Shown: piece after piece, positions 162-59,442 of the stretch
Position numbering within the stretch: position 1 is the stretch's first letter
How the letters are laid out: every line of letters starts with the position of its first letter
From: Amyelois transitella
Taxonomy: Eukaryota > Arthropoda > Insecta > Lepidoptera > Pyralidae
Reading direction: 5' to 3'
NCBI RefSeq assembly: GCF_032362555.1
Contig: NC_083519.1
Coordinates: 6,217,501-6,281,500, forward strand
DNA length: 64,000 nucleotides
Notes under the pieces: generated by a model
The model's input: only the letters and a program-made list of their open reading frames with translations
Database searches by the model: none
What the model was told of the DNA's origin: nothing
Program-made: the position numbers and the translations under genes

Positions 162-1031
162 CTAAAAGTCCGATCAAGTTAATATGTTGTAGTTCTTGCA
201 GCAACTTAATTTCTCTTAAAGCTGTCCTGTTGATTCCATCTTGAGCCTCTAAACGAGACCCTATTTTTATCTTCTTTACAGCAACTATTTTATCAGTTTT
301 GACATCTCTAGCTTTGTACACTGTTGCAAACTGTGGATAAATGTAAACTAAATTTATTGTACAAATAGGTACACTGATTTAAAAATGTCTATATCAGTTG
401 TGGGGTAAGACAGAGCCAATAGTCTTCAAAAGACTGATAGGCCACATTCTGCTGTTTGGCTAAATGATAGATTCAAATAGTGACAGATTGCTAGCCCATC
501 GCCTAAAAGAAGAATCCCAAGTTTATAATAGGTTACATTACATTTACAAAAACCATAAAAAAATATTTAGGGAATGTTGTGATGTGAAAGAAGATGTAGG
601 TAGTTACAGGAATAGAAAAGGGTATGTTAAGATGGTTTGGCCATGTGGAGAGGATGAATGAAAGCAGGTTGACTAAGCAGATACACAAGAAGAGTGTGAA
701 GGGATAGGTCGGAGTGGTCGGTCGGACTAGACAAACGTATCTTGATCAAATTAAGGACGTCCAGGCAAAGGGTCAGGTCAAGAGTACCCGAAACCGCCGA
801 GCTTGTATGAAGAAAAGATGAAGCGAAGGAAGTATGCAGAAATCGTGGCAAGTGGAAAGATGTAGTCTCTGCCTACCCCTCCGGGAAGGCGTGATTTTAA
901 GTATGTATGTATAAAAATTTACACAAATGGAAAATAACATTAGATATTATTTTTATAGCAAAAGATAGCTATCTTACCTGGCCTTCTCCAAGAAAGTCGA
1001 TTTTTTCATAGCGTAAGGTTGGTTCGTCCAT
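162..1031 (-). CDS. Cdk7: Cyclin-dependent kinase 7, 5' exons only (partial)
   Basis: Two coding exons on the minus strand: exon 1 at 1031-978 (18 codons, ATG at 1031-1029, donor GTAAGA) and exon 2 at 330-162 (acceptor ...CACAG, donor GTATGA, ending in phase 1). The protein opens [18 protein letters not shown] and continues [20 protein letters not shown]. The glycine-rich loop is split by the intron, the VAVKK lysine is the ATP-binding lysine, and NRTALRE is the CDK7 form of the PSTAIRE helix. CDK7 is the catalytic subunit of the CDK-activating kinase in TFIIH, phosphorylating the RNA polymerase II CTD and other CDKs. The remaining kinase exons lie left of the window; none is visible in 1-161. 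The intron (331-977) carries two retroelement fragments. It is divergently arranged with DET1, about 1.6 kb away. Confidence 0.93.
396..528 (-). repeat. Short TATG-tailed retroelement, middle fragment
   Basis: Degenerate internal part of the short retroelement family seen many times in this window (reference copy at 33188-33444). It is recognised by 'cagagccaatagtcttc', 'tagcccatcgcctaaaag' and 'gaatcccaagttt'. It lies in Cdk7 intron 1, just before a LINE fragment. Confidence 0.8.
568..913 (+). mobile_element. RTE-type LINE, 5'-truncated 3' end
   Basis: The last ~345 bp of the LINE family whose full-length copy is at 45682-48980. It encodes the C-terminal block (RWFGHVERM-like, then the [14 protein letters not shown]-like block) with substitutions and indels. 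It ends in the family terminus 'cctacccctccggg...gcgtgatttt' followed by a TATG-rich tail. It sits in Cdk7 intron 1, antisense to that gene. Confidence 0.88.
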
Positions 1032-2651
1032 ATTTTAATATTACTCAACTGTTTTACTTAGCACTAGTAATATATCTTAAACAAAAATACATCTATATAG
1101 ACATAACGTTACTTTACAAAAGGTAGGACTTTATTTTTTATTCAATTTTACGCTAAAATATACCACATCTGCAAATTCAAAATCAAAACACAAAACTGTA
1201 ATTTCAAATCTTTATCATGACATTTCACTTGTCATAAATAACACGCGCTTGCTTGACTAGTGTTTAAGCCGCTATTAGACTATGCGATATTAAGGCTATC
1301 TTAGTCTTAAAACGAATAGTGTAATAACAGTTAGACTCTGAATTCGGACTGCAATACCGGGCTCGAGGAGTCTTAATATCGAATAGTGTAAAAAGACAGA
1401 CTGTTCAGGCTGCTCTCGTGTCTGCAGTGAGTGGACGTGTCCGTGCGCTACGAATGTGTATATCAAGAAAATGGCGTGCTCCACAGCAACAATAGGAGCT
1501 ATTTTTAAGTGTCCTTGATTTATATCGAGAGATGTCATATTTATTACTTATGGCAAAAAAACATAGATACATACATGACAACAATACATGAATATAGTCA
1601 CGTCTATATACCTTGCTGGGTGAACAGAGCCAACAGTCCTAAAGAGTCTGATAGACAACGTTCAGCTGTACTGTATGGGTTAATTATAGAATTGAGATTC
1701 AAATATTGAAAGGTTGCTAGCCCATCGTCTAAAAGAATCCCAAGAGTTGGAGTGGCCCTATTCTAACGTGGAGAACCAAATGGCATAAAAATTAAGGAAT
1801 TAGATTGCAGGGGTTAACAGTTTTTTTTATACAAGTAATCTTCCTTTATTGAATAAATTTGAGATAAAATCGAGGTCATCACGTCCTAGTCGGAGGTAGT
1901 TTAATGAGTCGGATGTTTCCAATATTGTTATAACTAGTCAAAGACATTGCAGCAAGTGCTACGACAATATTTGCAAGCTTCGAGATGCCATACAACCGTC
2001 TAAGTCGACAGATTGCGTGAGACTGAACAAGCGTTCGTTTGACTGGTATAATAGCGACCAGTCTAGTTAGACTCTCAGACAGACCTAGTGTCTCTATTTA
2101 GTTTGTGAGACAGACTTAATGTCGCGTGCTGAAAAACGAATAGTGAAATAACAGCAGAAGCTGAACAAATGTCTTATCTACTATTCTTTTTCCATTCAAC
2201 TCTTGAAACCGCAACAATCAACATTGCAACTGGCGGGACCAGGCGGCTACAGAAGCAGGGTCAATTTAAGTCGATACTCTAAGGATCAATTGGAGTCAAT
2301 GATGCATGACAATGCACTCCGTGCCTGGCTTCAAATTACAGAAATTGTACATAAAAATTTCATCATTTCACTGTCAATGTCATTGTTTGTTTTGTTGTCA
2401 TCTTAGCTCTCAAACTTTGGGTTTCTGATTGTGTTCAATATTTTATTTTTATAAAAATTGATAGAAATTGTGTAAAATTTTAAGCTAGGTCACATTTATC
2501 ATGACATGCTGATTCAGATCATAAATAAATCCAAGTACTTTAAAAAGTTTGCGTAAATGAATTTAAGTGTATTCTTGATTGAATAGAAATCATGCCAGTT
2601 GAACCAGTTTTCTTTCCATGATCAAAACTTAGAGACAAATAATTTGTCGAA
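1032..2651. other. Divergent intergenic region between Cdk7 and DET1
   Basis: No coding exon found. It must hold the promoters of Cdk7 (minus) and DET1 (plus). It contains one short retroelement (1585-1785). The phrase 'aaaacgaatagtg.aataacag' occurs at about 1310 and again at about 2135, so a second low-copy repeat is likely. No clear TATA box was found. Confidence 0.6.
1585..1785 (-). repeat. Short TATG-tailed retroelement, internally deleted copy
   Basis: It runs from 'agtcacgtctatataccttg' through 'gttgctagcccatcgtctaa' to 'gtggagaaccaaatggca', so both tail (left) and head (right) are present. The segment with 'cgccttttacgacatccatgg' is missing. It is divergent from the other copies and therefore old. 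Confidence 0.8.
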
Positions 2652-5600
2652 ATGGCTTCAACAAGTAATCAGAGTAATGTTTATTATGAAGACATTCCAC
2701 CTGGGACCCTCAACGAGGAGGAGTTCTTTTGCACAGAGCGTATTGTCCCTAGGAAAATAAAACCCCAAAACATTGTTGTGAGATTAATGGAAAGAGAAAT
2801 ATATGGATCGAAAAAGCCAGGTTCGCATTTCCATGTGGTGCGAGAGTTCTACCAGAATATATTTCCTAATTTGACAATAGTGAACGTTGAAAAACCTCCA
2901 TGTTTCCTAAGGAAATTCAGTCCGGATGGAAAGCATTTTATTGCCTTTTCTGCTGATCAAACTTCCTTAGAGGTAAGCTGTAATTTTGTTTATAAGTGTT
3001 GCAAAAGCTGGCCACTCTTCTTGCTGAATTTCTGCTAAGCACATATGAAATCATGCTTGTCTCTTGGTGGGGTAGACAGACACTTTTCATAATCCTTTTG
3101 TTTTCTTCATATTCATGCTTTTCTTCATGCAAGCTCTTTTGTTTTGGGTTCTCTTGACCTGGCCCTTTGGTAGACTTCAGAGCAGTTCTGAATTTGGTTA
3201 TTTGTTATGTAAACTCTTCACAAGTTTGTTGCAAGATAAGCAAAAAATTGGTAATAAATAGTATATAAAATATATATACTTTCAGATATATGAATACAGA
3301 GGAGCTGCAGCAGCTGGAGACCTTGTTGCGGGCTATCCTTCAGATTTGTTGAATGCTGATGCTGACATACATTACCGGATCAGAACCCATATTTTCTACC
3401 GTTTTTTCAAAGTGAGTTTGTATTAACAAGTTAAAATAATATAGGAACATTACAAAAAAATCACAATAATTTTGATCTTGTATTAAAATTAATAACAACT
3501 TGTGACCCGCCCTGGCCGCAATTTTAAATCTGTAATATCTTAGAAATATTCATTTAAATCTTGTGCTGTAAAGGACCATAGAGATCTATATTAAATCAAC
3601 AATGTATTTAAGCTTTTTAATTGGATAAGGATTAATGCTGTATTGGTTAAAATTGCTTCAAAATTTGCCATTATTTGTCGCAAAAATTAAATGACAAAAA
3701 AAATTTATTGTGGGATGTCCATGAGAGATAGACACATACCATGGCGGAGTTTTCTGTAGACCTTTTCAAAGTGTACAAATAATAAATACATTATTTTGAT
3801 AAATCTCTAGGGTTCAGCCTGCTTTGGCAATGTTAGGAGAAAAAATATGATAATTAAGGACATCACATTAGAAACCTCAAAAATAACAGTATTTCTTCAC
3901 TATTTAATGGATGTTATTATACATGTAAACCTTCCCCTTGAATCACTATCTATTGAAATTTATAGATTTTAGCATACAAAGGAACATAGGGACAGAGACA
4001 GTGACTTTGTTTTCTACTATGTAGTGATTCTGTTGTAAACTGACACATTTAGAAATATTTATTTTCTTCAGCCAAAATATACAGTGAATGTATGTCAGCA
4101 ACGTGAAGTACCAAGAAATGAGCGAAACTCTAATCATATGCCACCAATGGAGCAGCAGCTCAACAGAGAATGCAGCCTGTTCACTGAGGATGGCCGGTAT
4201 GTCATAGTGGGCTCTGCGGCGCACATCCCTGATGACCTCAGACCACACTTCTATCACATACACAGCAACAATGAGGCTGTTACGCCTACTATGAGGTTAG
4301 TGTAGTTAAACATCGTAGTGTGCTTGTTTCGCAAAGTTAAGGTGCAAAGTTTCATAATCTAATTCTTCTTATGATTTGGCTAGTTCTTGACTGTTAGCTA
4401 ACGCTAATATTTCATATTGAAGATCAAATAGTATCATCATTGAGTAAGATCCCATTACACAAGTCTCAAATTTTCATTGGAGCTCAGTGTGATTTTTCCA
4501 TTTACTTTGAAAATGCAATGAGTACTGGAGTAACACCTGTGGCTCTCCCCACTTAAAAGGGGATTCTAAAAAATTGTCTCTTGGTGCACCTCTAGTCCAC
4601 ATAAGGTAATTCATATAACCTATATGGCAAGTTTCAATTCTCTAAATCCAGGGATTTTGCCTGCATGTTGATGTTAGTCTGTCAAACAATTGAATGACTT
4701 CTTTTATATAAAAATTCAAGAAGATTGTATGAAATTTGCTTATGCCAAAGGTAAAAGTTATACTTGTCAAAGTTAATAGCTACTCAAAATTCCTCTGGTA
4801 CTTATAACTGAGTTTTATATGTTATCGGTGTTTATGTTTCAGGTCAGCATTGGAAGATTATTCCCTCCATCTGGTGGATTTGCACCAGGGCAAGTTATGT
4901 GATACAAAACATTTTAGGATTGATAAAATCTATCTCTCTCATAACCAAGGCATCTACCTGTACAAGGAAGTGCTGGCGGTGCTTTCCGTCCAACATCAGA
5001 CAATACATTTATTCCAAATTGTTGATGGAATGTTGATTGAGATGAGGAAAATAGGCAGATTCTGTTATGATGACGACCCATTTATTGTTAGTTCAGTGTT
5101 TGCACCACTTTTACACGAAAGACCCTTCCATGAAGAGACAATAAATAGTTTGAAACACAGACTGCTTGTTTTCCTATTCAAAAGAGCAAAGACGATTAGC
5201 GACGAGAGCAGAGATCCCCTTGAACTAAGGAAATTTTATAAATACTTTGACATGTTCAGGAGTCTGAGAATGTGGAAGATGCAACTGCTTGATGAAGACC
5301 ATCTCTTTATTAAGTATGCAAGTGAAGAAGTAGTCACGTTGAGAGTGGCCGAACCGAACAGCCAGTCATCATTCTTTGTGATATACAACATTAGTGAGAG
5401 TAAAATTTTGGAAGTATATGAAAACACTTCTGAAGGGTTGTTACAACTGTTTGAAAATTACTGTGATTGTTTTAGAAATGCCAGACTGTGCGCTGATTCA
5501 CAATTTACGTGCTCGCCGTCTAACAATCTGTATGCTCGCATGACACAGCAGAGGTTCAAGCAGACAATTGTAAGAGCTATATACGGCGGGCGCACAGAGG

Positions 5601-31043: not shown

Positions 31044-33187
31044 ACCTCTTTTAATTAGTTTATAATAGTTAAAGATAAAGTAACTACCAGTAAAAGTAAG
31101 AAATGTATTAAGACATGAGTGGCGAATAAAACATTTTGCATATTAGCACTGTATATAAACGAATGATCGGAGTATTAGGATCTGTAAAGTACAAAAAAAA
31201 TATTCAGCTACTTAACTGATGAAAACGTATAATTAAAACATCAAAGCACATTCGTTGCCGCCAAAGCGGAAACACGAGCAACAAAATAATGTATTCGACG
31301 TTTCTGAGTAAGGTATGGAGTAGCAAGGCAAGGCGAGCGAGGCCAAGATTTGTTGCAGCGAAATCATAAACACAATACGAGCAACGAGATTGGCCGTCGG
31401 AGGATGCAGGCGCGTGCCGGGTTGAACGACCACAGCGACTCGACGCGTTTCACTTTCATCGCATCCAGCCACCGCACCGCGGACGCCTTGCGGCACTTGC
31501 AATCATGACACCTAATTACAATTTGCAGTCTGTATCTAAGCATACCCAGCATGTATAATATACACCCAAAAAGATCCTGACATATCCAGAATTACAGTTT
31601 ACTCTATCAGTAGAAACTTGCGAAGAGGCTTGCATTTAATCGCCTTCAACCAAAACGCTCACTGACTTTCCAAAACAAATGAAAATTATAAAATAGTTCC
31701 CACTTTGAGGGGATTTTAAGGAGAGACACAATTTGATAGTTCTTTAAGTCGGTTGAACTAAGGTAGGTACCATTAGTAAGAATAAGGCATTCAAGAACTA
31801 TTTAAACTAAAAAGAACTAATAAATTCAAGAACATTTTATTTTACTCTGTTTAGAAATCTAAACAGAGTAAAATAAAATGTTCTTGAATTTCGGAACATG
31901 ATGACATCAAAAAATATGGATGTTCAAGAGATCGATATACTATAAACATTTAAACGTAACAGTATGGCTACGATCTTACGACGATAACGTAAAGAGCCCG
32001 CGAATGCTCCATTTTCAAAGAACCGGTCGGACTGACTTTGTACAAATGTCAGATAAATACTCCAAATAATTACGATTACTATCACTAGTGTCATGAACCT
32101 CTTTACCTAGTGCATACAATATAAACAAATATTCAACTCATTGAATAATAAATTTAGGTGCCCTTGGTAATTCTTAGTAGTTAATAATTACTACTTATTG
32201 TATGATACGTATTCAATCTGTTTATTTACAAAGGACATTGGTATAAAGTAAAACGTGATGGTCGTTGACTTTAAATAAATGTAGGAAGTGAAACGCAGTA
32301 CTGAGTTCCAAGTTTACCACTGTGTTTATGTTACTGGCACCGTGTTTACATTTTATTTCAGTAAGAAACTGTAATTATAAAGATTTATAGAACATTCCTT
32401 TCTATATCTATGCATGGCAGGGAAATGTTGTACATAATTTTTTATTCTCATTGCAAGATAAGCTTCGTTGTGCAGCTTAGCAATAAATAATAGAAATGAT
32501 ACATGAGAACATTTTTCCATAAGGCCTAAATAAATTACTAACAAATTGGAGTTAAAAACTAACCTTTGTTCAATAGAAAAAAAAACGTATTTTGAGTGGA
32601 AATCTTATTTCCCGTTTAAATTGATTTTCCAAGCGGCAAACGCAGTTTACAAAGAAAATTACAGTACGGCCTTAATGCTAATAGGAATTACTTCCTTCCC
32701 CTCAAGAATGTCGGTATTAAAAAGACCAAAAGTTGTTGCCTTGCGTAGAATGATAAAATGTAAAATTTATACTTATATGTGCATACATATATATAAAACC
32801 TTCAGACCACTTTCAGCCTAAAGTGTCCAGAGACTTGAAATTGCATGCATGTAGATTCTTTGTGGTCTAGGGATGCACTAAAAGGTATTTCCAAAACTTA
32901 AAAACGGGAATTAACTGGACTTTACCTTCTTCTAGTAAGGCAAATATAAAGGCAAATTCGTGCTTTCCCCTGTCAACAGCGATGTCTATACGCCAGCCAT
33001 AAATAAACTGCTTCCGAAGGGTATTTTCATGCTTGGAAACCATTAATACTGCTTTGCCTGGGAGGGACTGAAGTTTCCATAAATCATAGAAGACGTAGTC
33101 GCTCCCTATTTTTATTGGTAGTAATTAGTTATTAGCGTTATATATTATTCAGTAAATAGATATTTCTACCTATTTCTTAAAAATAAA
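31044..33187. other. Intergenic, with a CpG-richer patch at about 31300-31510
   Basis: No exon identified. The patch around 31300-31510 is clearly richer in G, C and CpG than its surroundings ('ggcaaggcgagcgaggcc', 'ccaccgcaccgcggacgcc'). It could be a promoter or untranslated exon, perhaps for Csk on the minus strand. It also holds the palindrome at 31822. Confidence 0.35.
31822..31891. repeat. Perfect 34-bp inverted repeat with 2-nt centre
   Basis: The arm starting 'aaattcaagaacattttatt' (31822-31855) is mirrored exactly at 31858-31891. As a single strand it forms a 34-bp hairpin with almost no loop. It does not match any other repeat in the window. Confidence 0.93.
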
Positions 33188-33444
33188 CATACATACATAT
33201 AATCACGTCTATATCCCTTGCGGGGTAGACAGAGCCAACAGTCTTGTAAAGACTAACAGGCCACGTTTAGCTGTTTGGCTTTAAGATGGAATTGAGATTC
33301 AAATAGTGACAGGTTGCTAGCCCATCGCCTAAAAGAAGAATCCCAAATTTATAAGCCTACCCCTTAGTCGCCTTTTACGACATCCATGGGAAAGAGATGG
33401 AGTGGTCCTATTCTTTTTTCTATTGGTGCCGGGAACCACACGGC
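33188..33444 (-). repeat. Short TATG-tailed retroelement, full-length reference copy
   Basis: About 257 bp. Read on the minus strand, it starts with a small hairpin (GCCGTGTGGTTCCCGGCAC) and continues with 'ccatggatgtcgtaaaaggc', 'ggcgatgggctagcaacctg' and 'aagactgttggctctgtcta'. It ends 'gacgtgattatatgtatg' with a TATG tail. No ORF was found, and I see no convincing tRNA-type A/B boxes. Confidence 0.9.
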
Positions 33445-37810: not shown

Positions 37811-38684
37811 ATGAGTTTTTATAGATATGGTTGTCGGTTTGTTACTAACATATGATTTTATTTATTTACAATTAGATTATTTAACCCTATTGCATGATTT
37901 TTCCTATTTTTTTTTAAGTAAATCAGGTTGATGTAATTAATGCTCTAGATTAAGGAAAAATATTTTAAAAAATCCTAGTATACATAAGAATTTGAATTAT
38001 TTAAAAAACAGAGATGAAAATTTACATTCAAATTGCATTGTTACATATATAGCTCAGTACTAAATAAGTCAAAAGATATTGTTTACTTTTTCTCTTTTAT
38101 TCTAAATGATAATTTAAAAACAATTATTATTTTTATTCAAGCACAAATTAACTCCACATCGATTAAATGAAATTGTGGAATAGCCTTTACATTTGGGAAA
38201 TTTACACCGAAGTGACCTTTCTTTTTTTTTATTGTAATTCTTCTTCTAGTAGACTGGTACTAGGGTTTTGTTGTACGCAATAGTCATTTATAAAGTTGCC
38301 AGCAACAACAAATTTAAAGTTTACAGTTTTTGAGTACCTTTTTTTCTTCACTAAATGTTATGATTGAAATTTCCATCATCATGCAAAGAAGGGTTAAAAC
38401 TATTAAAACGTGAAAATCCCTACATCAGCCCCCACTTGAGAGGGACTTCATAATCTACAGCAGAAAGGGATGTTATGTTAGTTGTAGTCTGTTGGGGCAA
38501 CTGGCATAATGCCTATAGCTAGTAAGAAATATAGTCATGGTGCTTTAGTAAAATATGTTTAACTTCTAGAACATTAACATTTGGAAAGCTGTGATGTTGC
38601 AGAGTTAAGCTCTTAGCATCAACAACTCTTCAATCTAAAGTTCCCTATGAGGCTGGCATAGTTACACAAAGTGAATTAAGACTC

Positions 38685-38933
38685 ATACATACATATGATC
38701 ACGTCTATATCCCTTGTGGGGTAGACAGAGCCAACAGTCTTGAAAAGACTGAAAGACCACATTCAGATGTTTGGCTTAATGATAGAATTGAGATTCAAAT
38801 AGTGACAGGCTGCTAGCCCATCGCCTAAAAGAAGAATCCCAAGTTTATATGTCGCCTTTTACGACATCTGTGGGAAATGGTAATGGAGTTGTCCTATTCT
38901 TTTTTTCTATTGATGCCAGGTACCACACGGCAC
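38685..38933 (-). repeat. Short TATG-tailed retroelement, full-length
   Basis: 'catacatatgatcacgtcta' to 'ccaggtaccacacggcac' with every landmark present. It is close to the reference copy apart from a few-base loss before 'gtcgccttttacgacatc'. Confidence 0.88.
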
Positions 38934-42717: not shown

Positions 42718-43965
42718 GGTCTGTTTGTATTAGTGTTGAGGTATCTTGTGCCGAACTTGAGGAACACATTGTTATTTGTATTTATAGTCCACTCAATAAT
42801 AGTTTTATTAATTTCCTGAATGTAATAAATAAATAATAATAATTTTATTTATTTTTTCACAAAATTTTTACATTTGGTGCATGCAAGTAACAGGGTTAAC
42901 ACTTATACTACTACTTTTAATAAAATAGGTAATTACTGTAAATTTTGTGAAGACTGGCGCTTGAAATAGGCTTAAACTGCCTGTCGTACAAGACACCAGG
43001 TCTCCACATCCTAGATAAGGCTTCTATTATAATTTTAACAAATTGTGACATATATCTTTGAACTCAGTTCACACACATATAATTATATCTATAGAACCGA
43101 GATGCTTGCGTTGGGTGTATAAGATAAACAATATAGGAACATACAATATAAAAAAAAAATATTTAAGGGCATACATAGGTACATATAGACACAAACGCAT
43201 ATATAAATATTCGTGCATAAGAAAGTGATTTTTTTTTCTTTATTTAAATTTATATTTCTCTTGCGTTGGGGAGCCTTATGCCTTATTTTTATTTTATTTT
43301 ATTTTTGTTAATATGTGTTTTGGTTTTTTTTTTCATTATTTTAATGGTGTCAAGAGGTGATCTATATCATATTCATTTAGATGGAGTAAATAGTTAAATT
43401 ACTTATCTTTTAATTGTTTGTTAGTGTACTTAATAATATTTAATCTGTTTTGAAGGATGGTATATATTCTTGGGGCTAGAAAGTTGTATAATCTTTGAGC
43501 AAAGCGAGTCTTACATAGGGGTACATTAAACCGATATCTTCTAGTGTCAGACAGTAAGGTTTGTGCAGAATGACGGTGAAACCTGCGAACAACATTATAC
43601 TTATATGAAGAGCTTGCGTAAGCTTAGGGTCTTAGTTTTGAAATGAAGTAGCGCAGTTGGATGACGAATTGGCACAGACATGAGTACTTTCAAAACTGCT
43701 CTTTGTGCTCTTTCCACTGGTAGAAAGTGTTCCTGCGCTGCAATGGAGGAAGTTCTAAGAGTAGTTGCAAAAAGTAATAAGAAAGTAATTGTTTGCGGTG
43801 ATTTTAACATTGACCTATTAGTTAGCTCCACAGTGACAACACAGTTTCGTAACCTACTTAAATGTTTTAACTTAGACAATGCGTTCTTGGAACCAACCCG
43901 CTTCATTGCCACATGCTAAATGTATTGATAATGTTTTTAGTGAAAAGAAACCAAATAATAAAAAA
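42718..43965 (+). mobile_element. LINE endonuclease fragment split by another LINE
   Basis: The plus strand encodes ISVEVSCAELEEHIVICIYS at 42731-42790, continuing to about 42832. It resumes at about 43741 with EEVLRVVAKSNKKVIVCGDF, then NIDLL and FNLDNAFLEPTRFIATC. Together they read as one APE-type endonuclease of a Jockey/CR1/I-like LINE (GDFN motif). The gap is filled by a minus-strand LINE. Frameshifts occur near 43917. A 5'-truncated RTE-type copy begins right after it. Confidence 0.75.
42833..43740 (-). mobile_element. 5'-truncated LINE inserted in the endonuclease fragment
   Basis: On the minus strand, reading down from about 43735: HFLPVERAQRAVLKVLMSVP, then HPTALLHFKTKTLSLRKLFI, a frameshift, then NVPLCKTRFAQRLYNFLAPR. 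This is the end of a reverse transcriptase ORF of a CR1/R1-like LINE. A long 3' UTR follows and an (AAT)n-type tail at about 42822-42850. It is older than the RTE insertions by its indels, but younger than the LINE it interrupts. Confidence 0.7.
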
Positions 43966-45681
43966 TAGAGGGGTACAACAACAGTAAAAAGAGAAAACGA
44001 GGAGTTCTGGAATAGTGTAAGAGAAGTATTAAAAGTTACCAAGCCAAATGAAAAGATTATTATGCTACGTGTTATTTTAATGGATGGGTGGGGTTGTACA
44101 GCGTAATGGATATGAAAGGTGAAGGTGTTTGTTGCGTTTGGTGACGAAAAGATGAATGATAATGGAAGAAGTGTATTAGAAATTTGTCTAGAGTGGGATC
44201 TTTTTGTGTCGAACTCAATGTTTCGACATAAAAAGATCCACACCTACACAAGAGTGGAAGGTATTTTAAAAAGTATGATAGACTTTGTGATTGTAGATAA
44301 AAGTTGAAGAAAAATTGTAAAAGTAGCTGTTGAAGTGTGTAGTGTAAGTATAAGAAGAAAAAAAAACAAAATCACAAAAGTGCGTGGATGAGTAAAGATG
44401 TGCAAGACTTGTGCGAGAAAAAAAGAAAGCATGGCTGGATTTGTTTGCAGTAAAAGCTAACTTAAGAATGCAAAAGGTCATGGATGAAGATGTGAATGAA
44501 GCACGTAAGGAATATAAAAAAATAACAAGATTTGGTTAAGAAAGCTGTGAATAGAAAGAAAGAAGAGTATAAAGAGGAATTTGATAAAAGGCTATCATAA
44601 GACTTTCAGTCAAATCTGAAAGTATTCTGGAAATCCGTAAGATCAGTCCGAGGAAAAACTATAACCAGTGAGATGACTAGGATCAGTTGCCAGGATGGTA
44701 GCGTTGTGAAAGGAGAAGAATGTGTGCTAAAGATATGGAAGGACTATTTTGAAAGTTTATTTGAAAAAAAGGAAGGAAATTATAAAGATTTCTGATTTAG
44801 CGAAGAAAAAGAGAATGAGATGGAAGGCGAAATTGAAATGTTCGAAATTGTGGAAGCACTTAAGAGAAGAGTATGAAAGCGGGTAAGGCTGCTGGGTATG
44901 ATAGTGTCGGTCGAGATGCTAAAAGCAGGAAAAGGCGTAGTAGCTAGTCAGTTGTACTGCCTTTTCAATTTGTGTTGGAGAAGCGGCCGAGTACCAAAAG
45001 ATTGGTGTAAGGATGTTATCGTACCCCTATTCTATAAAGTCTATTGCTCATTCGTAGATCTGGAAAAGGCCTATGACAGAGTTAAGAGGAATGAATTTGG
45101 TCAGCACTTTCTATACATGGGGTGAGCAGTTTTTTAATACGAGCACTGAAATCCTTATATGAGGATTCGAGTGCTTGTGTCAGGATAAACGGAGCGCACA
45201 CTGAGTGGTTTAAGATTGAGAAAGGCGTTAGGCAAGGATGTGTTGCGTCACCGCAACTGTTCTGTTCTGTGGCTGTTCAACCTATTTATGGATAGTTTGA
45301 CAGATTTGAAAGAGCCTGAAATTGGTTTAAGGATGAATGAGTTACTAGACAAATGTCTGCTCTATGCCGACGATCAGGTTATACTGGCGTCATTAGCGGA
45401 AGAATTACAGGAGATGGTAAACTGTATGCGTGAAGCTTTAAAAGAGAAAGGAATGAAAGTGAACGTAAGTAAAACTAAAACACTGGTTTTTGAAATGGAG
45501 AAAGAAATGACAGCATGTAATATTTTGATTGGAGGAGAAAAAGTTGAGCAAGTGAAAGAGTTTGTATATCTAGGATCAAAGTTTACATCAGATGGCAAGT
45601 GTGATAGTGATATTGAAAGGAGAGTGAACGCGGGGAACATGGTGAATGGAGCTTTGCATGCCTTTATGAGCAGTCAGAAAC
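43966..45681 (+). mobile_element. Decayed RTE-type LINE copy, left part
   Basis: It starts at the codons for RGTTSAKSENEEFWNSVRE of the family and runs to the MSSQK codons. Many stops and frameshifts are present. Two internal deletions are visible: near 44306 (between the VIVDE and VKVAVEV codons) and near 45035 (between VPLY and KVYCTFVDL). It is interrupted at 45681 by the full-length copy and continues at 48993. Confidence 0.9.
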
Positions 45682-48600
45682 ATACATACATACATACATA
45701 AAATCACGCCTCTTTCCCGGAGGGGTAGGCAGAGACTACCTCTTTCCACTTGCCACGATCTCTGCATACTTCTTTCGCTTCGTCCACATTCATAACTCTC
45801 TTCATTCAAGCTCGGCGGTTTCGGGTACTTTTGACCTGACCCTTTACCAGGACGTCCTTAATTTGATCAAGATACGTTCGTCTAGGTCTTCCCACTCCGA
45901 CCTTTCCCTCCACACTCTCCTTGTATATCTGCTTAGTCAACCTGCTTTCATTCATCCTCTCCACATGACCGAACCATCTTAACATACCCTTTTCTATTCC
46001 TGTAACTACATCTTCTTTCACATCACAACATTCCCTTATCACGCTGTTCCTTATCCTGTCACTCAATTTCACACCCATCATACTCCTTAACGCTCTCATT
46101 TCCACTGCATTTATTCTGCTTTCATGCTTCTTTTGCCATACCCAACTTTCACTCCCAAACATTAATGTCGGGACCAACACGCCCCTGTGCACAGCCAGTC
46201 GAGCCTTTTTGGATAGTTTCTGACTGCTCATAAAGGCATGCAAAGCTCCATTCACCATGTTCCCCGCGTTCACTCTCCTTTCAATATCACTATCATACTT
46301 GCCATCTGATGTAAACTTTGATCCTAGATATACAAACTCTTTCACTTGCTCCACTTTTTCTCCTCCAATCAAAATATTACATGCTGTCATTTCTTTCTCC
46401 ATTTCAAAAACCAGTGTTTTAGTTTTACTTACGTTCACTTTCATTACTTTCTCTTTTAAAGCTTCATGCATACAGTTTACCATCTCCTGTAACTCCTCCG
46501 CTGATGACGCCAGTATAACCTGATCGTCGGCATAGAGCAGACATTTGACGAGTAACTCATTCATCCTTAATCCACTTTTAGACTCTTTCAAATCTGTCAA
46601 ACAGCTATCCATAAATAGGTTGAACAGCCACGGTGACGCAACACATCCTTGCCTAACGCCTTTCTCAATCTTAAACCACTCAGTGTGCGCTCCGTTTATC
46701 CTGACACAAGCACTCGAATCCTCATATAAGGATTTCAGTGCTCGTATTAAGAGACTGCTCACCCCATGCATAGAAAGTGCTGACCACAATTCATTCCTCT
46801 CAACTCTGTCATAGGCCTTTTCCAGATCTACGAATGTGCAATAGACTTTTTGACTCTTGGCCAAAAACTTTTCGGCTATGCACCGCAAGGAAAAGACCTG
46901 ATCAGTACATCCCATTCCCTTTCGAAATCCCGCTTGAGCATCCCATATTTTGTCATCAGTTTCATTCCTGACTCTATTAATCAATACCTTAGCATACAAT
47001 TTGCCGACGACGCTAAGCAGGCTTATACCACGATAATTTTTGCAGTCCAGCTGTGACCCTTTTCCTTTGTAAAGTGGCACGATAACAGCCTTACACCAAT
47101 CTTTTGGTACTCGGCCGCTTCTCCAACACAAATTGAAAAGGCAGTACAACTGACTAGCTACGACGCCTTTTCCTGCTTTAAGCATCTCGACCGACACTCT
47201 ATCACACCCAGCAGCCTTTCCCGCTTTCATACTCTTAAGTGCTTCCACAATTTCGAACATTTCAATTTCGCCTTCCAACTCATTCTCTTTTTCTTCGCTA
47301 TAGCAGAAATCTTTCTTATTTCCTTCCTTTTTTTCAAATAAACTTTCAAAATAGTCCTTCCATATCTTTAGTACACATTCTTCTCCTTTCACAACGCTAC
47401 CATCCTGGCATCTGATCCTAGTCAGCTCTCTGGTTATAGTATTTCCTCGGGCTGACCTTACGGATTTCCAGAATACTTTCAGATTTGACTGAAAGTCTTC
47501 TGATAGCCTTTTATCAAAATCCTCTTTATACTCTTCTTTCTTTCTAATCACAGCTTTCTTAACCAAATCTTTCATTTTCTTATATTCCTTACGTGCTTCA
47601 TTCACATCTTCATCTATAACCTCTTGCATTCTTAAGTTAGCTTTTGCTGCTAACAAATCCAGCCATGCTTTCTTCTTTAATCGCACAAGTTCTTGCACAT
47701 CTTTACTCATCCACGCATTTTTGTGATTTTTTCCTTTCCTTCTTCTACTTACACCACACACTTCAACAGCTACTTTCACAATTCTTTCTTTAAATTCCTT
47801 CCATCCATCTTCAATATCGCTCATTTCATCTAAATCTTCAAATTCATCCTTCAGTCTATTAATATACTTCTTACCTACATCCATATCTTGCAAATTTTCT
47901 ACTTTTACTCTTTCCAAAGCGCTGGTTTGCTCCCTTACCCTGTGCCGCCAGCGATTGAAGATACCCCTTATCCGGGATATCACCAGTAAATGGTCCGAGT
48001 CAATGCCAGCACCGCGATATGCACGGGTATCCAGCACTTTGTTCTTCAATCTTTCATCTACAATCACAAAGTCTATCATACTTTTTAAAATACCTTCCAC
48101 TCTTGTGTAGGTGTGGATCTCTTTATGTTGAAACATTGAGTTCGACACAAAAAGATCCCACTCTAGACAAATTTCTAATACACTTCTTCCATTATCATTC
48201 ACCTTTTCGTCACCAAACGCACCAAGCACCTTTTCATATCCATCACGCTTTACACCCACCCATCCATTAAAATCACCTAACATAATAATCTTCTCATTTG
48301 GCTTGGTAACTTTCAATACTTCTCTTACACTATTCCAGAACTCCTCGTTTTCGCTTTTTGCTGATGTTGTACCCCTCGAACCCACATCCCAAGGTGCATA
48401 AACACCTAGAACGAAGATCCGAGTGATTCCAACTTTCAGCCTAATCCATAGAAGACGAGGGCTGACACACTCATACTCATTCACGCACTCAGCCATTCGT
48501 GCAGAAAGAATTAGACCGACCCCTTGACAGCCTCGGCTGGTACTGGAAATTCCAGACCAATACGCCGTGTAAGGGCCGTGCTGCGTCGCGTCGCATCCTT

Positions 48601-48980
48601 TCCGCTTCGTTTCATTCACGCACAACACATCCAAACGTCTTTCATCCATCATCTGGCATACTTCCTCAATCTTATCCTTCATTCCTCCTCTTACATTCAT
48701 CGTCGCAAAGCGGCTTTCAGCAGACCGCATACCGCTCCCGCCGGGAACGAGACGTGATGGGGTGCGGACACCATCGCCGCCATTTATATGCTTTTTAAGG
48801 TTCATAATGCGATTCCCACGAGACGCTAGGGAAAAATTTTGTCCGCCCCAGCAGAGCCCCGCATGCCAGGGTAAGGCTAGCCATTACCTGGGGGTCGCCC
48901 AACCCCATGGCGGAAGTGGCACGCTCGAGACTAGGCTCGCCCCTAGCCATGCATCCATCGGCGCGGCAGACCTTAGATTG
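45682..48980 (-). mobile_element. Full-length RTE-type LINE (3.3 kb) with 12-bp target duplication
   Basis: On the minus strand: 5' UTR 48980-48806 (GC-richer), one long ORF from 48805, then a very short 3' end and a TATG tail at 45682-45700. The 12-bp sequence 'gcagtcagaaac' flanks both sides (45670-45681 and 48981-48992), proving insertion into the older copy. Single ORF, about 3.3 kb size, negligible 3' UTR and a tandem tail all fit the RTE clade; formal placement needs a tree. Confidence 0.92.
45806..48805 (-). CDS. RTE-type LINE polyprotein: endonuclease and reverse transcriptase
   Basis: 999 codons. An APE-type endonuclease occupies about residues 33-290: MNVRGGM strand, CVNETK (catalytic Glu), VLGVYAPWD, GDFN at 177-180, SDHLLVISR. 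The reverse transcriptase is about 500-800: AGCDRVSVEML, YRGISLLSVVGKLYAKVL, CTFVDLEKAYDRV, GVRQGCVASPWLFNLFMD, and YADD at 758-761. The C-terminal domain has [19 protein letters not shown] and [14 protein letters not shown]. The other copies here read ...RRACMKR and go on for about 34 more codons to a stop inside the 3' terminus (45706-45704). In this copy the TGC is TGA (45808-45806), so the last part is lost. Otherwise I see no frame break. Confidence 0.9.
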   Translation of the reverse strand: MNLKKHINGGDGVRTPSRLVPGGSGMRSAESRFATMNVRGGMKDKIEEVCQMMDERRLDVLCVNETKRKGCDATQHGPYTAYWSGISSTSRGCQGVGLILSARMAECVNEYECVSPRLLWIRLKVGITRIFVLGVYAPWDVGSRGTTSAKSENEEFWNSVREVLKVTKPNEKIIMLGDFNGWVGVKRDGYEKVLGAFGDEKVNDNGRSVLEICLEWDLFVSNSMFQHKEIHTYTRVEGILKSMIDFVIVDERLKNKVLDTRAYRGAGIDSDHLLVISRIRGIFNRWRHRVREQTSALERVKVENLQDMDVGKKYINRLKDEFEDLDEMSDIEDGWKEFKERIVKVAVEVCGVSRRRKGKNHKNAWMSKDVQELVRLKKKAWLDLLAAKANLRMQEVIDEDVNEARKEYKKMKDLVKKAVIRKKEEYKEDFDKRLSEDFQSNLKVFWKSVRSARGNTITRELTRIRCQDGSVVKGEECVLKIWKDYFESLFEKKEGNKKDFCYSEEKENELEGEIEMFEIVEALKSMKAGKAAGCDRVSVEMLKAGKGVVASQLYCLFNLCWRSGRVPKDWCKAVIVPLYKGKGSQLDCKNYRGISLLSVVGKLYAKVLINRVRNETDDKIWDAQAGFRKGMGCTDQVFSLRCIAEKFLAKSQKVYCTFVDLEKAYDRVERNELWSALSMHGVSSLLIRALKSLYEDSSACVRINGAHTEWFKIEKGVRQGCVASPWLFNLFMDSCLTDLKESKSGLRMNELLVKCLLYADDQVILASSAEELQEMVNCMHEALKEKVMKVNVSKTKTLVFEMEKEMTACNILIGGEKVEQVKEFVYLGSKFTSDGKYDSDIERRVNAGNMVNGALHAFMSSQKLSKKARLAVHRGVLVPTLMFGSESWVWQKKHESRINAVEMRALRSMMGVKLSDRIRNSVIRECCDVKEDVVTGIEKGMLRWFGHVERMNESRLTKQIYKESVEGKVGVGRPRRTYLDQIKDVLVKGQVKSTRNRRA

Positions 48981-48992
48981 GCAGTCAGAAAC

Positions 48993-49526
48993 TATCCAAA
49001 AAGGCTCGACTGGCCACAGCCAGTATAGGGGCGTGTTGGTCCCGACATTAATGTATGGGAGTGAAAGTTGGGTATGGCAAAAGAAGCACGAAAACAGAAT
49101 AAATGCAGTGGAAAAGAGAGCTTAAGGAGTATGATGGGTGTGAAATTGAGTGACCGGATAAGGAACATCGTGATAAGGAAATGTTGTGATGTGAAAGAAG
49201 ATGTAGTTACAGGAATAGAAAAGGGTATGTTGAGATGGTTCGGTCATGTGGAGAGGATGAATGAAAGCGGGATGACTAAGCAGATATACAAGAAGAGTGT
49301 GGAGGGAAAGGTCGGAGTGGGAAGACCTAGACGAACGTATCTTGATCAAATTAAGGACGTCCTGGTAAAGGGTCAGGTCAAAAGTACCCGAAACCGCCGA
49401 GCTTGCATGAAGAGAGTTATGAATGCGGATGAAGCGAAAGAAGTACGCAGAGATCGTGGCAAGTGGAAAGAGGTAGTCTCTGCCTACCCCTCCCGAAAAG
49501 AGGCGTGATTTTATTTATGTATGTAA
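48993..49526 (+). mobile_element. Decayed RTE-type LINE copy, right part
   Basis: Continuation of the copy at 43966-45681 after the nested insertion: LSKKARL codons, then VPTLMYGSESWVWQKKHE and the C-terminal domain, open to the family stop at 49506-49508 (one frame change near 49105). It ends with 'aggcgtgattttatttatg' and a short TATG tail. Confidence 0.9.
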
Positions 49527-50072: not shown

Positions 50073-51267
50073 ATGACTGCTAAAGAAGGCAAGATTTTTG
50101 CTTCGTTTGATTCCTTTCGGAATTATATTTCAGTGATTAGTAAGAGGAAATCTTTTAGATATGGTCTGCCTTTTATATTACTAGTAATAGGAGGATCATT
50201 CGGTCTTAGAGAATTTGCACAAGTAAGGTTATGTATCAAATGTGTTGTATATATACTTGTTTTTACTGCTGCTCCCCACGAGTTCGTCTGTCATTTATAC
50301 ATACATACATAAAATCACGCCTCTTTTCCGGAGGGGTAGGCAGAGACTACCTCTTTCCACTTGCCACGATCTCTGCATACTTCCTTCTCTTCATCCACAT
50401 TCATAACTCTCTTCATGCAAGCTCGGCTGTTTCGGGTACTCTTGACCTGACCCTTTACCAGGACGTCCTTAATTTGATCAAGATATGTTCGTCTTGGTCT
50501 TCCCACTTCAACCTTTCCTTCAACACTCTCTTTGTAATCTGTCATTTATGTCTATAAAATTTCAGGTACTTATTATGTTATTCCAATTTCTAAGCTATAT
50601 TACAGAAAATTTTTATGAAAATCCATGTAGAAGTTTTTGGATGAAAGAGACATACAAACACATCCATACATCTTAACAAACCTTGCTTCTATATTATTAG
50701 TAGGGTTCAATTATAAGGCTATGTTACATACAAACACAAGCTGCAGTGAGAAAGCCTCTGATCCGTTGTCTCTGGTTGAGGTAGAGGTTTTATTGTAGTC
50801 TTTGGGTCTGTGGTTTTCCAAAGCTCATACTCTTTTGTGTGCCCTCACTAAATGCCTGGTTGACACCACAAGCAAGCAGAGCTGGCACCATCCTTGCACA
50901 ATGTATTGTCAATGTGATACTGTAAGGAAATGCTGCTGTCATTTTTCATTTCCTCTGTAGCCATAACTTTTGAAGGATATGGGCCAGCAACCTTTCACAG
51001 CTTGAATCTCAAATCCATAATAAACCCATACAATCTTTGCATAAGTGTTTTAACAAAATTGTTCTTTACAGATATCAATTCTCCCAAGTCAAAGGAGTCA
51101 GTAGAGAAGAAGCTCAAAAAATGGGCCTCAATAAAACTAAAAATGTTACATTAGAAGACACATATGAAGAAATAAAGAATCTTGATATTGATAATTGGGA
51201 AAATAAACGAGGGCCCCGTCCATGGGAAGAACCCACCAGTCAAACCAAAAAGGAAATGAAAAAGTAG
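50073..51267 (+). CDS. COX16: COX16, cytochrome c oxidase assembly factor
   Basis: Exons 50073-50227 and 51072-51267 join in phase 2 into 116 aa. Recognised by [20 protein letters not shown] followed by RYQFSQVK and the C-terminal [11 protein letters not shown], matching human COX16 ([30 protein letters not shown]). The hydrophobic stretch (residues about 31-46) is the single inner-membrane helix. COX16 assists copper/COX2 assembly of complex IV in mitochondria. The donor is the second of two adjacent GT sites ('AAG|GTTATG'); using the first (50223) would put a stop in exon 2. The intron contains an RTE LINE fragment and another dispersed repeat. Confidence 0.93.
50299..50537 (-). mobile_element. 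5'-truncated RTE-type LINE in the COX16 intron, with 12-bp target duplication
   Basis: 239 bp of the family 3' end in reverse orientation ('acataaaatcacgcctcttt' onward). 'tctgtcatttat' is duplicated at 50287-50298 and 50538-50549. Sequence is close to the full-length copy, so a fairly young insertion. Confidence 0.93.
50570..50703 (+). repeat. Dispersed repeat 3' end ('atattattagtaggg')
   Basis: 'gaaagagacatacaaacaca' and the end 'ctatattattagtaggg' resemble the 3' end of a common lepidopteran repeat also seen at about 61895-62045 and 41290-41398. Left boundary not defined. Confidence 0.5.
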
Positions 51268-58246: not shown

Positions 58247-58552
58247 TAAATGTTAAGATGGTTCGGTCATGTGGAGAGAATGAATGAAAGCAGGTTGACT
58301 AAGCAGATATACAAGGAGAGTGTGGAGGGAAAGGTCGGAGTGGGAAGGTCTAGACGAACGAATCTTGATCAAATTAAGGACGTCCTGGCAAAGGGTTAGG
58401 TCAAGAGTACCGAATACCGCCGAGCTTGCATGAAGAGAATGTGGATGAAGCGAAGGAAGTATGGAGAAATCGTGGCAAGTGGAAAGATATAGTCTCTGTC
58501 TACCCCTTCAGGAAAGCGGCGTGATTTTATGTATATGTGTATGTACACTATA
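58247..58552 (+). mobile_element. RTE-type LINE, 5'-truncated 3' end
   Basis: About 300 bp from the RWFGHVERM codons to 'gcgtgattttatgtatatg'. Flanked by 'actataa' on both sides (about 58242 and 58555), a likely short target duplication. Several indels. Confidence 0.88.
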
Positions 58553-58566
58553 ATAACAACTTAGTA

Positions 58567-58845
58567 TACATACATATGGTCACGACTATATCCCTTCCGG
58601 GGTAGACAGAGCCAACAGTCTTGAAAAGACTGAATGACCACATTCAGCTATTTGGCTTAATGATAGAATTGAGATTCAAATAGTGACAGGTTGCTAGCCC
58701 ATCGTCTAAAATAGAATCCCAAGGTTGTAAGCCTATCCCTTAATCGCCTTTTACGACATCCATGGCAAAGAGATGGAGTGTTCCTATTCTTTTTTGTATT
58801 GGTGCCGGGAACCACACGGCACTGCCGGGAACCACACGACACAAC
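58567..58845 (-). repeat. Short TATG-tailed retroelement, full-length with doubled head end
   Basis: 'tacatatggtcacgactata' to 'gccgggaaccacacggcac'. The last motif is then repeated ('gccgggaaccacacgacac'), so the head terminus occurs twice in tandem. Confidence 0.88.
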
Positions 58846-59092: not shown

Positions 59093-59442
59093 TGTAAGGC
59101 CACATTCAGCTGATAGGAAGTGAATAATGACAGGTTGTTAGTTCACAGCCTAAAAAAATGCCAGTTTATTAGCTGTTCCCTTAGGACCCCTGCAGCGTTC
59201 CGCCGACTACGCCTGAAATATGTAAAATGACGAGCTGTCAACTAAACCATGACCCTCTTGGCACGCTGCACGGGCCCTTAGTCTCCTTTAACGACATCCA
59301 TTGAACAATATGGAGTGGTCCTATACATACATACATAAAATCACGCCTTTTTCCCGGAGGGGTAGGCAGAGACTATCTCTTTCCACTTGCCACGATGGTC
59401 CAACGTGGTCCTATTCTAAAGTGAAAGGAACCACACGACACT
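59093..59442 (-). repeat. Short TATG-tailed retroelement interrupted by an LINE fragment
   Basis: An old copy ('taaggccacattcagctgat' to 'aaaggaaccacacgacac') carrying unrelated sequence at about 59180-59270 and the LINE insertion at 59325-59404. Confidence 0.8.
59325..59404 (-). mobile_element. 80-bp RTE-type LINE end with 10-bp target duplication
   Basis: 'catacataaaatcacgcctt' onward matches the family terminus. 'gtggtcctat' occurs on both sides (59315-59324, 59405-59414) and belongs to the interrupted short retroelement. Confidence 0.9.

What the first reader, a model, noticed from the sequence alone, without database searches (positions are those of the whole stretch)
45670..48992. Full-length RTE-type LINE inserted head-on into an older copy of itself, with a perfect 12-bp target duplication
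The older plus-strand copy breaks in the SQK codons at 45681 and resumes in the same codons at 48993. The intruder is flanked by 'gcagtcagaaac' on both sides and is complete from 5' UTR to TATG tail. This fixes the exact termini of a family otherwise seen only as 3' fragments, and shows recent activity.
Basis: seen in the sequence. Interest (0 to 1): 0.72.

Follow-up and report, generated by a model that had tools for sequence, protein, structure and literature searches.

The report
Nested moth LINE, one of many
A young RTE-type jumping element in a moth-like genome landed backwards inside an older relative, which is ordinary for so abundant a family; but it is not the complete element, and its start point turns out to be one of two recurrent 5' ends of the family, the longer of which shares about its first 90 to 110 bases with short repeats in the same genome.

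Summary
The insertion is real. 45682-48980 is a minus-strand RTE-type LINE inside a plus-strand relative, with GCAGTCAGAAAC on both sides; the joined flanks align across the junction. The host copy is older (4.8% from the intruder; intruder 0.15% from the majority of 19 young copies). Two claims fail.

(1) The intruder is not complete. In 26 of 30 genome copies that match its first 300 bp, a common ~118-bp head lies directly upstream. In 60 copies sampled without regard to the 5' end, 40 carry this head, 15 start within 4 nt of the intruder's start with different flanks, and 5 are other. So the family has two discrete 5' ends and the intruder is the short form. Short and long copies share a polymorphism and show no fixed substitution.

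(2) The family is not one of 3' fragments: 700 places carry a 5'UTR 27-mer. Self-nesting recurs (3 of 88 copies). The intruder's ORF also stops 34 codons early.

The unexpected part is the head, shared with ~250-bp repeats that also resemble the LINE's tail. Second start site versus reverse-transcriptase stop remains open.

The parts
45670..45681 (+). left copy of the 12-bp target-site duplication GCAGTCAGAAAC (within host SSQK codons)
48981..48992 (+). right copy of the duplication; GCAG at 48981-48984 is also the family's own 5' sequence (CTGC in sense), so the element may reach 48984
   Evidence: reading
45682..48980 (-). intruder: short-form RTE-type LINE copy, 3,299 bp, lacking the ~118-bp head of the long form
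48806..48980 (-). 5'UTR of the intruder, 175 bp
   Evidence: (ORF start 48805)
45806..48805 (-). ORF of 999 aa, ended by an in-frame stop that is absent from the 18 other copies aligned
47981..48706 (-). endonuclease region (Exo_endo_phos / Exo_endo_phos_2 matches, residues 34-275)
46316..47056 (-). reverse transcriptase domain RVT_1, residues 584-830
   Evidence: (E 6.9e-40)
45704..45805 (-). remaining codons of the family ORF behind the early stop, up to the family's own stop
45682..45703 (-). very short 3'UTR (22 nt behind the family's own stop) with TATG microsatellite tail
43968..45681 (+). host copy, 5' part: RTE copy that starts at intruder position 604, with two internal gaps relative to the intruder and several indels
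48993..49525 (+). host copy, 3' part with TATG tail
50297..50541 (-). 3' fragment of the same family with its own duplication TCTGTCATTT(AT), in the intron between two COX16 exons
569..912 (+). 3' fragment of the family
58250..58545 (+). 3' fragment of the family
59323..59396 (-). 3' fragment of the family
33187..33444 (-). ~258-bp SINE-like repeat: LINE head at its 5' end (90%), LINE tail at its 3' end (81%)
38684..38931 (-). SINE-like repeat, as above (78% / 79%)
58566..58820 (-). SINE-like repeat, as above (89% / 75%)

Best explanation
An RTE-type LINE transcript of the family's short class, starting at (C)TGC|CAATC, was inserted by target-primed reverse transcription, antisense, into an older copy that lacks the 5' 600 bp and was already decaying. 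Shown: antisense insert, duplicated target, intact 3' terminus, rejoinable flanks, host about 30 times more diverged than the intruder, a recurrent short 5' end in independent insertions, and no fixed substitution between the short and long copies compared. Inferred: TPRT itself; that the short class starts at a second initiation site about 115 nt inside the long element; that the head (shared with SINE-like repeats) carries or marks the first initiation site; and that the intruder was made from a source element other than itself.
For: Duplication and rejoined flanks. Relative ages. Domains. Long head in 26 of 30. 5' ends of 60 places not chosen by 5' end: 40 long, 15 short within 4 nt, 3 truncated elsewhere, 2 with a diverged head. 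Genome-wide: 700 places with the 5'UTR 27-mer against 449 with the head-end 27-mer, both at <=3 mismatches, controls 0; 158 places match a pattern that excludes the intact long form, and in the 100 listed T is at -3 in 94, G at -2 in 98 and C at -1 in 100. Duplications of 8-12 bp at 8 of 16 other short copies whose two ends were compared, one of the 8 (L043) doubtful. No fixed substitution between 5 short (intruder included) and 26 long; site 1153 segregates T/G in both. 0 of 20 copies lacking the exact 5'UTR 27-mer reach positions 200-600, so 5' stops between the 5'UTR and position 600 are not common.
Against: No transcript data, so a start site is not shown. A predicted hairpin in the head ends at -3, which leaves a reverse-transcriptase stop possible. 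Of the 16 short copies compared, 7 gave no 3' end in the fetched stretch, 1 (L089) showed no duplication above 4 nt, and the one of L043 consists of tail-like TATG letters and may be a match to the tail. Two of the three short copies fetched whole (L060, L062) have extra letters between duplication and element (read by eye).
Confidence: 0.85

Rival explanations
1. The short 5' end is a reverse-transcriptase stop, not a start site: first-strand synthesis on the long RNA halts at the base of a hairpin at the end of the head (AGGGAU...AUCCCU, 3' arm ending at -3).
For: The head folded alone, or its last 45 nt with 40 nt downstream, has this hairpin; the observed starts (-3, with a templated-looking C at -4 in 48 of 100) lie within two nucleotides of its base; common source for short and long.
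Against: With 60, 120 or 180 nt of downstream RNA the best fold of the whole no longer holds this hairpin, and a stop at its base would leave ends at -2 rather than -3/-4. The 5'UTR just downstream folds far more stably (-69 kcal/mol for 178 nt) without a matching pile-up of ends: 0 of 20 probes; and 3 of 60 copies end elsewhere between -112 and +18. Odds lowered from 0.3 after one search corrected the position of the hairpin.
Confidence: 0.25
2. The short form is the ancestral complete LINE and the long form is a chimera: a SINE-like head was joined upstream of CTGCCAATC, by insertion next to a SINE-like repeat or by template jumping, and now dominates. Not exclusive with the best explanation.
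For: The head matches separate ~250-bp repeats at 78-90%, the match by eye ends about 10 nt from the short start, and the short start is a discrete end.
Against: Two older copies (L102 96%, L127 92.7% over the 5' 400 bp) already carry a diverged head, so the join is not very recent. The reverse, a SINE-like repeat made from LINE ends, is equally possible. The search for older copies did not complete (last tried).
Confidence: 0.35
3. The intruder is a full-length element and CAATC is the family's true 5' end.
For: 15 of 60 copies start there.
Against: 40 of 60 start at about -118 with flanks of their own; several such copies have duplications there.
Confidence: 0.05
4. Inverted structure produced by recombination or by misassembly.
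For: Inverted homologous copies can do this in principle; no reads were at hand.
Against: Exact duplication, intact tail, insert and host 3-6% different in all four segments, and the same target stretch uninterrupted in other copies (L006, L007: one block).
Confidence: 0.02

Closest known systems
Lepidopteran RTE elements HmRTE-e01 and BmRTE-d01 to d25 (Tay et al. 2010, PMC2887409)
   Same: One ORF with endonuclease and RT, 5'UTR, extremely short 3'UTR made of a microsatellite, target duplications; HmRTE-e01 has 990 aa and a 20-bp duplication with a known empty allele.
   Different: Tay et al. report around 2 to 4, at most 22, full-length copies per element in Bombyx, and in the parts I read no second 5' end is described. 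Here 700 places carry the 5'UTR 27-mer, there are two discrete 5' ends, and the longer has a head shared with short repeats.
HaRTE1.1 with SINEs HaSE1/HaSE3 in Helicoverpa armigera (Wang et al. 2012, PMC3272025); Metulj SINEs with a suspected RTE partner (PMC6685494)
   Same: SINEs whose 3' tail matches an RTE LINE.
   Different: In the passages I read only the 3' tail is shared. Here three short repeats in the window resemble the LINE at the 5' ~90-100 bp and the 3' ~50 bp. I could not compare with the published sequences themselves.
Trypanosomatid L1Tc/ingi and their short partners with the common 77-nt 5' end Pr77 (PMC4035085, abstract; PMC8190864, start of abstract in listing)
   Same: LINE and short relatives share a 5' end.
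   Different: Pr77 has promoter activity and holds an HDV-like ribozyme; no such ribozyme was detected here. Different hosts; relation of the elements not tested.

Membership tests
RTE clade (non-LTR retrotransposons) | Single ORF with N-terminal endonuclease and RT | tested here: met
   Exo_endo_phos_2 just above cut-off (27.6 vs 27.4), Exo_endo_phos below cut-off, RVT_1 E 6.9e-40
RTE clade (non-LTR retrotransposons) | No RNase H domain | tested here: met
   no such Pfam match at E 0.01
RTE clade (non-LTR retrotransposons) | Very short 3'UTR ending in a short tandem repeat | tested here: met
   22 nt with TATG repeats
RTE clade (non-LTR retrotransposons) | Target-site duplications | tested here: met
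   intruder 7-12 bp; 8 of 16 short copies 8-12 bp, one of them doubtful, 7 not readable, 1 none
RTE clade (non-LTR retrotransposons) | RT groups with RTE-1, JAM1, BovB in a tree | not testable with these tools
   no reference RTE sequences were at hand; the solved-structure search gives LINE-1 ORF2, R2 and similar RTs
Full-length member of this family | Starts at the 5' end of the majority form | tested here: not met
   lacks the ~118-bp head present in 40 of 60; it has the recurrent short end (15 of 60)
Full-length member of this family | ORF as long as in intact young copies (1,032-1,033 aa) | tested here: not met
   999 aa; 10 of 18 others have 1,032-1,033, the other 8 have 64-877
tRNA- or 5S-derived SINE (for the ~250-bp repeats sharing the head) | tRNA- or 5S-related 5' region | tested here: inconclusive
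   no tRNA or 5S match in Rfam for one such repeat at E 1 nor in the window at gathering scores; A/B boxes not tested
HDV-like ribozyme at the LINE 5' end | Nested double pseudoknot at the 5' end | tested here: not met
   none in Rfam up to E 10 for one long and one short 5' end and for the intruder's 5'UTR; own permissive descriptor 0 hits for either end, while 15 of 60 shuffles gave at least one

The most novel reading that the evidence does not exclude
An RTE LINE with two working 5' ends that shares both termini with SINE-like parasites: a head at the 5' end gives the long RNA and an internal site at TGCCAATC gives the short RNA, from the same sources, and both are mobilised at roughly 2 to 3 long per short. 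Promoter modules would then be exchanged between LINE and SINE, and the 5' terminus of a LINE would not be a fixed property of the family.
Probability: 0.35. Interest if true: 0.5.

Novelty: new variant of a known kind. Interest (0 to 1): 0.36.

Why it matters
The nested insertion itself is routine: nested-insertion chronology is an established method (used in PMC4016481, passages), and this family is abundant. What matters is the correction that a clean target duplication and a microsatellite tail do not prove a full-length LINE, and the two discrete 5' ends among hundreds of copies. These give a natural experiment on where LINE RNAs start and on how LINEs and SINE-like repeats come to share 5' sequences. 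The family is young and large enough to test this by 5'-end sequencing.

Tried and rejected
HDV-like ribozyme as the cause of the sharp 5' ends: suggested by a CTAAGGGA motif in the head (resemblance recalled), rejected. Early stop as a mark of an active truncated lineage: L010 and L018, which looked identical at the 3' end, share the stop letter, but L010 lacks the intruder's four other private letters and has 8 mismatches over 1,800 bp. More diverged copies of that list also seem to show it (L011, L013, L017 by a short context match), and this search favours rare words because common ones are skipped; I read it as recurrence, not shown. The two pattern counts meant to settle it did not complete. 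Relatives in viral contigs: none (one scan; genome contigs not scanned). Head motifs in the literature: none of four words is printed in a paper of the held library. Searches for a LINE with a SINE-like 5' end or alternative starts gave nothing fitting (no paper; read as listings, from which PMC4016481 and PMC6685494 were then read in passages). Host-copy target duplication: not resolved. First upstream comparison was wrong because minus-strand loci are not turned; redone. The random control counted the real site among its draws; redone exhaustively. I first placed the hairpin arm at -4 by eye; one search puts it at -3. Count of all exact 26-mers, count at position 420 and search for older copies with L145 did not complete (last tried), so the age of the head rests on two copies. 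Selection: the 19-copy alignment comes from copies 100% identical over 300 bp, so its 0.15-0.2% divergence is a young-biased figure; the 60 places were exact to a 27-mer, also young-biased. Two of the 20 whole copies (L054, L055) did not reach the 3' end and were dropped. Only substitutions, not indels, were compared between short and long. The probes assume no large indels.
Full report
OBSERVATION. The window holds GCAGTCAGAAAC exactly at 45670-45681 and 48981-48992 and, on the other strand, inside the insert's own copy at 46216-46227: 3 matches where shuffles give 0.29 at up to one mismatch. Between the first two lies 45682-48980, 3,299 bp, whose reverse complement matches the flanking plus-strand copy. 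Joining the flanks with one 12-mer gives a single alignment block across the junction, insert positions 2132-3294. Over all 60,541 site pairs of this spacing in the window, only the reported one shares 12 nt or more; the next shares 9.

ANATOMY. On the minus strand the insert has a 175-bp 5'UTR, a 999-aa ORF with endonuclease and reverse transcriptase matches (among solved structures LINE-1 ORF2 and R2 lead), and a TATG tail. An in-frame stop ends the ORF early; in-frame codons continue behind it to a second stop 22 nt before the end of the tail. In an alignment of the intruder with 18 other copies, none of the 18 has that stop and 10 of 18 have ORFs of 1,032-1,033 aa. This is the layout described for lepidopteran RTE elements by Tay et al. 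2010 (PMC2887409; I read the abstract, part 1 of 3 of Results, the Discussion and found passages).

HOST COPY AND AGE. The host begins at intruder position 604 and has internal gaps. It differs from the intruder at 107 of 2,216 aligned bases (2.9-6.3% by segment), with 34, 31 and 42 differences at codon positions 1, 2, 3, close to what an unconstrained copy gives. The intruder differs from the majority letter of 19 copies at 5 of 3,275 positions, all private to it among those copies. So 'older' and 'recent' hold. With a Heliconius rate of about 2.9e-9 per site per generation (recalled, from no call) this would be at most about half a million generations for the intruder and some 17 million for the host; rough figures only.

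THE GENOME. The window is G000:C15:6217501-6281500 of a 327-Mb genome in 33 contigs, and the 12-mer occurs 2,410 times against 19 for its reversed control. A query of the first 300 bp of the intruder lists 40 places, each at 100% (40 of 882 candidates were scored). A 27-mer of the 5'UTR at up to 3 mismatches occurs 700 times, control 0. So the family is not one of 3' fragments only, and the intruder is one of hundreds of copies reaching the 5'UTR.

THE 5' END. In 26 of the 30 loci fetched, the same ~118 bp stand directly upstream of the intruder's first base; beyond them the flanks differ. To avoid choosing by 5' end I took the first 60 exact places of the 27-mer (positions 19-45) in genome order out of 100 listed and fetched their 5' junctions. 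Result: 40 reach the 5' end of the head (-112 to -121), 15 start at -1 to -4, 3 start at -26, -42 and -53, and 2 (L102, L127) carry a diverged head that I did not trace to its end. The flanks of the 15 differ from each other. Genome-wide, 449 places match a 27-mer at the end of the head against 700 for the 5'UTR. A pattern that excludes the intact long form finds 158 places; in the 100 listed, T, G, C stand at -3, -2, -1 in 94, 98 and 100, and -4 is C in 48, A in 38, T in 13, G in 1. The family thus has two discrete 5' ends, and the intruder is the short class.

TERMINI AND DUPLICATION. Long copies show duplications bordering the head and the tail, for example L052, L056, L058, L066 (read by eye). 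Of 16 short copies whose ends I compared, 8 show shared stretches of 8-12 bp, one of which (L043) is tail-like and doubtful; 7 gave no 3' end in the stretch fetched; 1 showed none above 4 nt. In several the letters (C)TGC stand between duplication and CAATC, so they belong to the element. In the intruder the target ends in CTGC as well; 12 bp is therefore an upper bound and 7 bp the unambiguous core.

SHORT VERSUS LONG. Over the body, 5 short copies (intruder included) and 26 long copies show no fixed substitution. The polymorphism at 1153 (T/G) is 3/2 in short and 12/14 in long, and mean divergence from the majority over the first 1,800 bp is 0.19% and 0.18%. I conclude that both classes come from the same sources. 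Either the RNA has a second start, or reverse transcription stops at one place. The head folded alone has a hairpin whose 3' arm ends at -3, which allows the second reading; but it is lost when 60 nt or more of downstream RNA are folded with the whole head, and its base does not quite fit ends at -3/-4. The much more structured 5'UTR shows no comparable pile-up: of the first 27 places of the 12-mer on C1, 7 have the exact 27-mer, and of the other 20 none reaches positions 200-600. I favour the start site.

THE HEAD. The 118-bp head matches 11 places in the window. Three of them pair with a match to the LINE tail to form repeats of 248-258 bp (33187-33444, 38684-38931, 58566-58820; heads 78-90%, tails 75-81%). 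RTE-tailed SINEs are known in Lepidoptera: HaSE1 and HaSE3 (PMC3272025, passages) and, as a suspected partnership, Metulj (PMC6685494, passages); PMC8010984 (abstract and one section) describes further tRNA- and 5S-derived families, one with a LINE-like tail. In those passages only the tail is shared. Sharing of the 5' end has a parallel in trypanosomatid Pr77 (PMC4035085, abstract; others in listing). Rfam finds no tRNA, 5S or ribozyme here. Which side gave the head to the other is open; two older LINE copies, 96% and 92.7% over 400 bp, already have one.

NESTING IS ORDINARY. Among 88 distinct copies (30 + 60, two in both lists), the 40-60 bp of 5' flank of 3 (L023, L024, L091) lie in another copy of the family, two of them antisense; two weaker matches were left out, an 18-bp match of TATG tail letters (one copy, L048 = L112) and an 18-bp match in L128.

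VERDICT. A sound catch of a nested LINE, wrongly taken as complete. The more interesting property, two recurrent 5' ends with a head shared with SINE-like repeats, was not visible from the window alone.

Noticed in passing
50073-50228 and 51073-51264 (+): Two exons of the cytochrome c oxidase assembly gene COX16 (Pfam PF14138). The nested LINE ends about 550 bp upstream of its ATG, and a 3' fragment of the same LINE family (50297-50541) sits in the intron between them.
   Followed up: partly
43743-43916 (+): Directly upstream of the host copy a reading frame weakly resembles an endonuclease of another LINE (E 0.01, below cut-off), so the host copy may itself lie in a different retroelement.
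   Followed up: partly
59275-59396 (-): A 74-bp LINE 3' fragment borders a piece of the SINE-like head (matches overlap at 59323-59324), as if it had inserted into a SINE-like repeat.
   Followed up: no
58729-58840 (-) and L061: The first bases of the head (GTGTGGTTCCC) are repeated in tandem at the 5' end of one SINE-like repeat and of one LINE copy, perhaps template jumping at the 5' end.
   Followed up: no
L060, L062 (5' junctions): Two short-form copies have about 8-18 extra letters between the target duplication and the element that contain a second CAATCTA, resembling the element's own first bases (read by eye).
   Followed up: partly
L091 (G000:C2:446581-446781), L024: Further antisense self-nested insertions of the same family.
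   Followed up: partly
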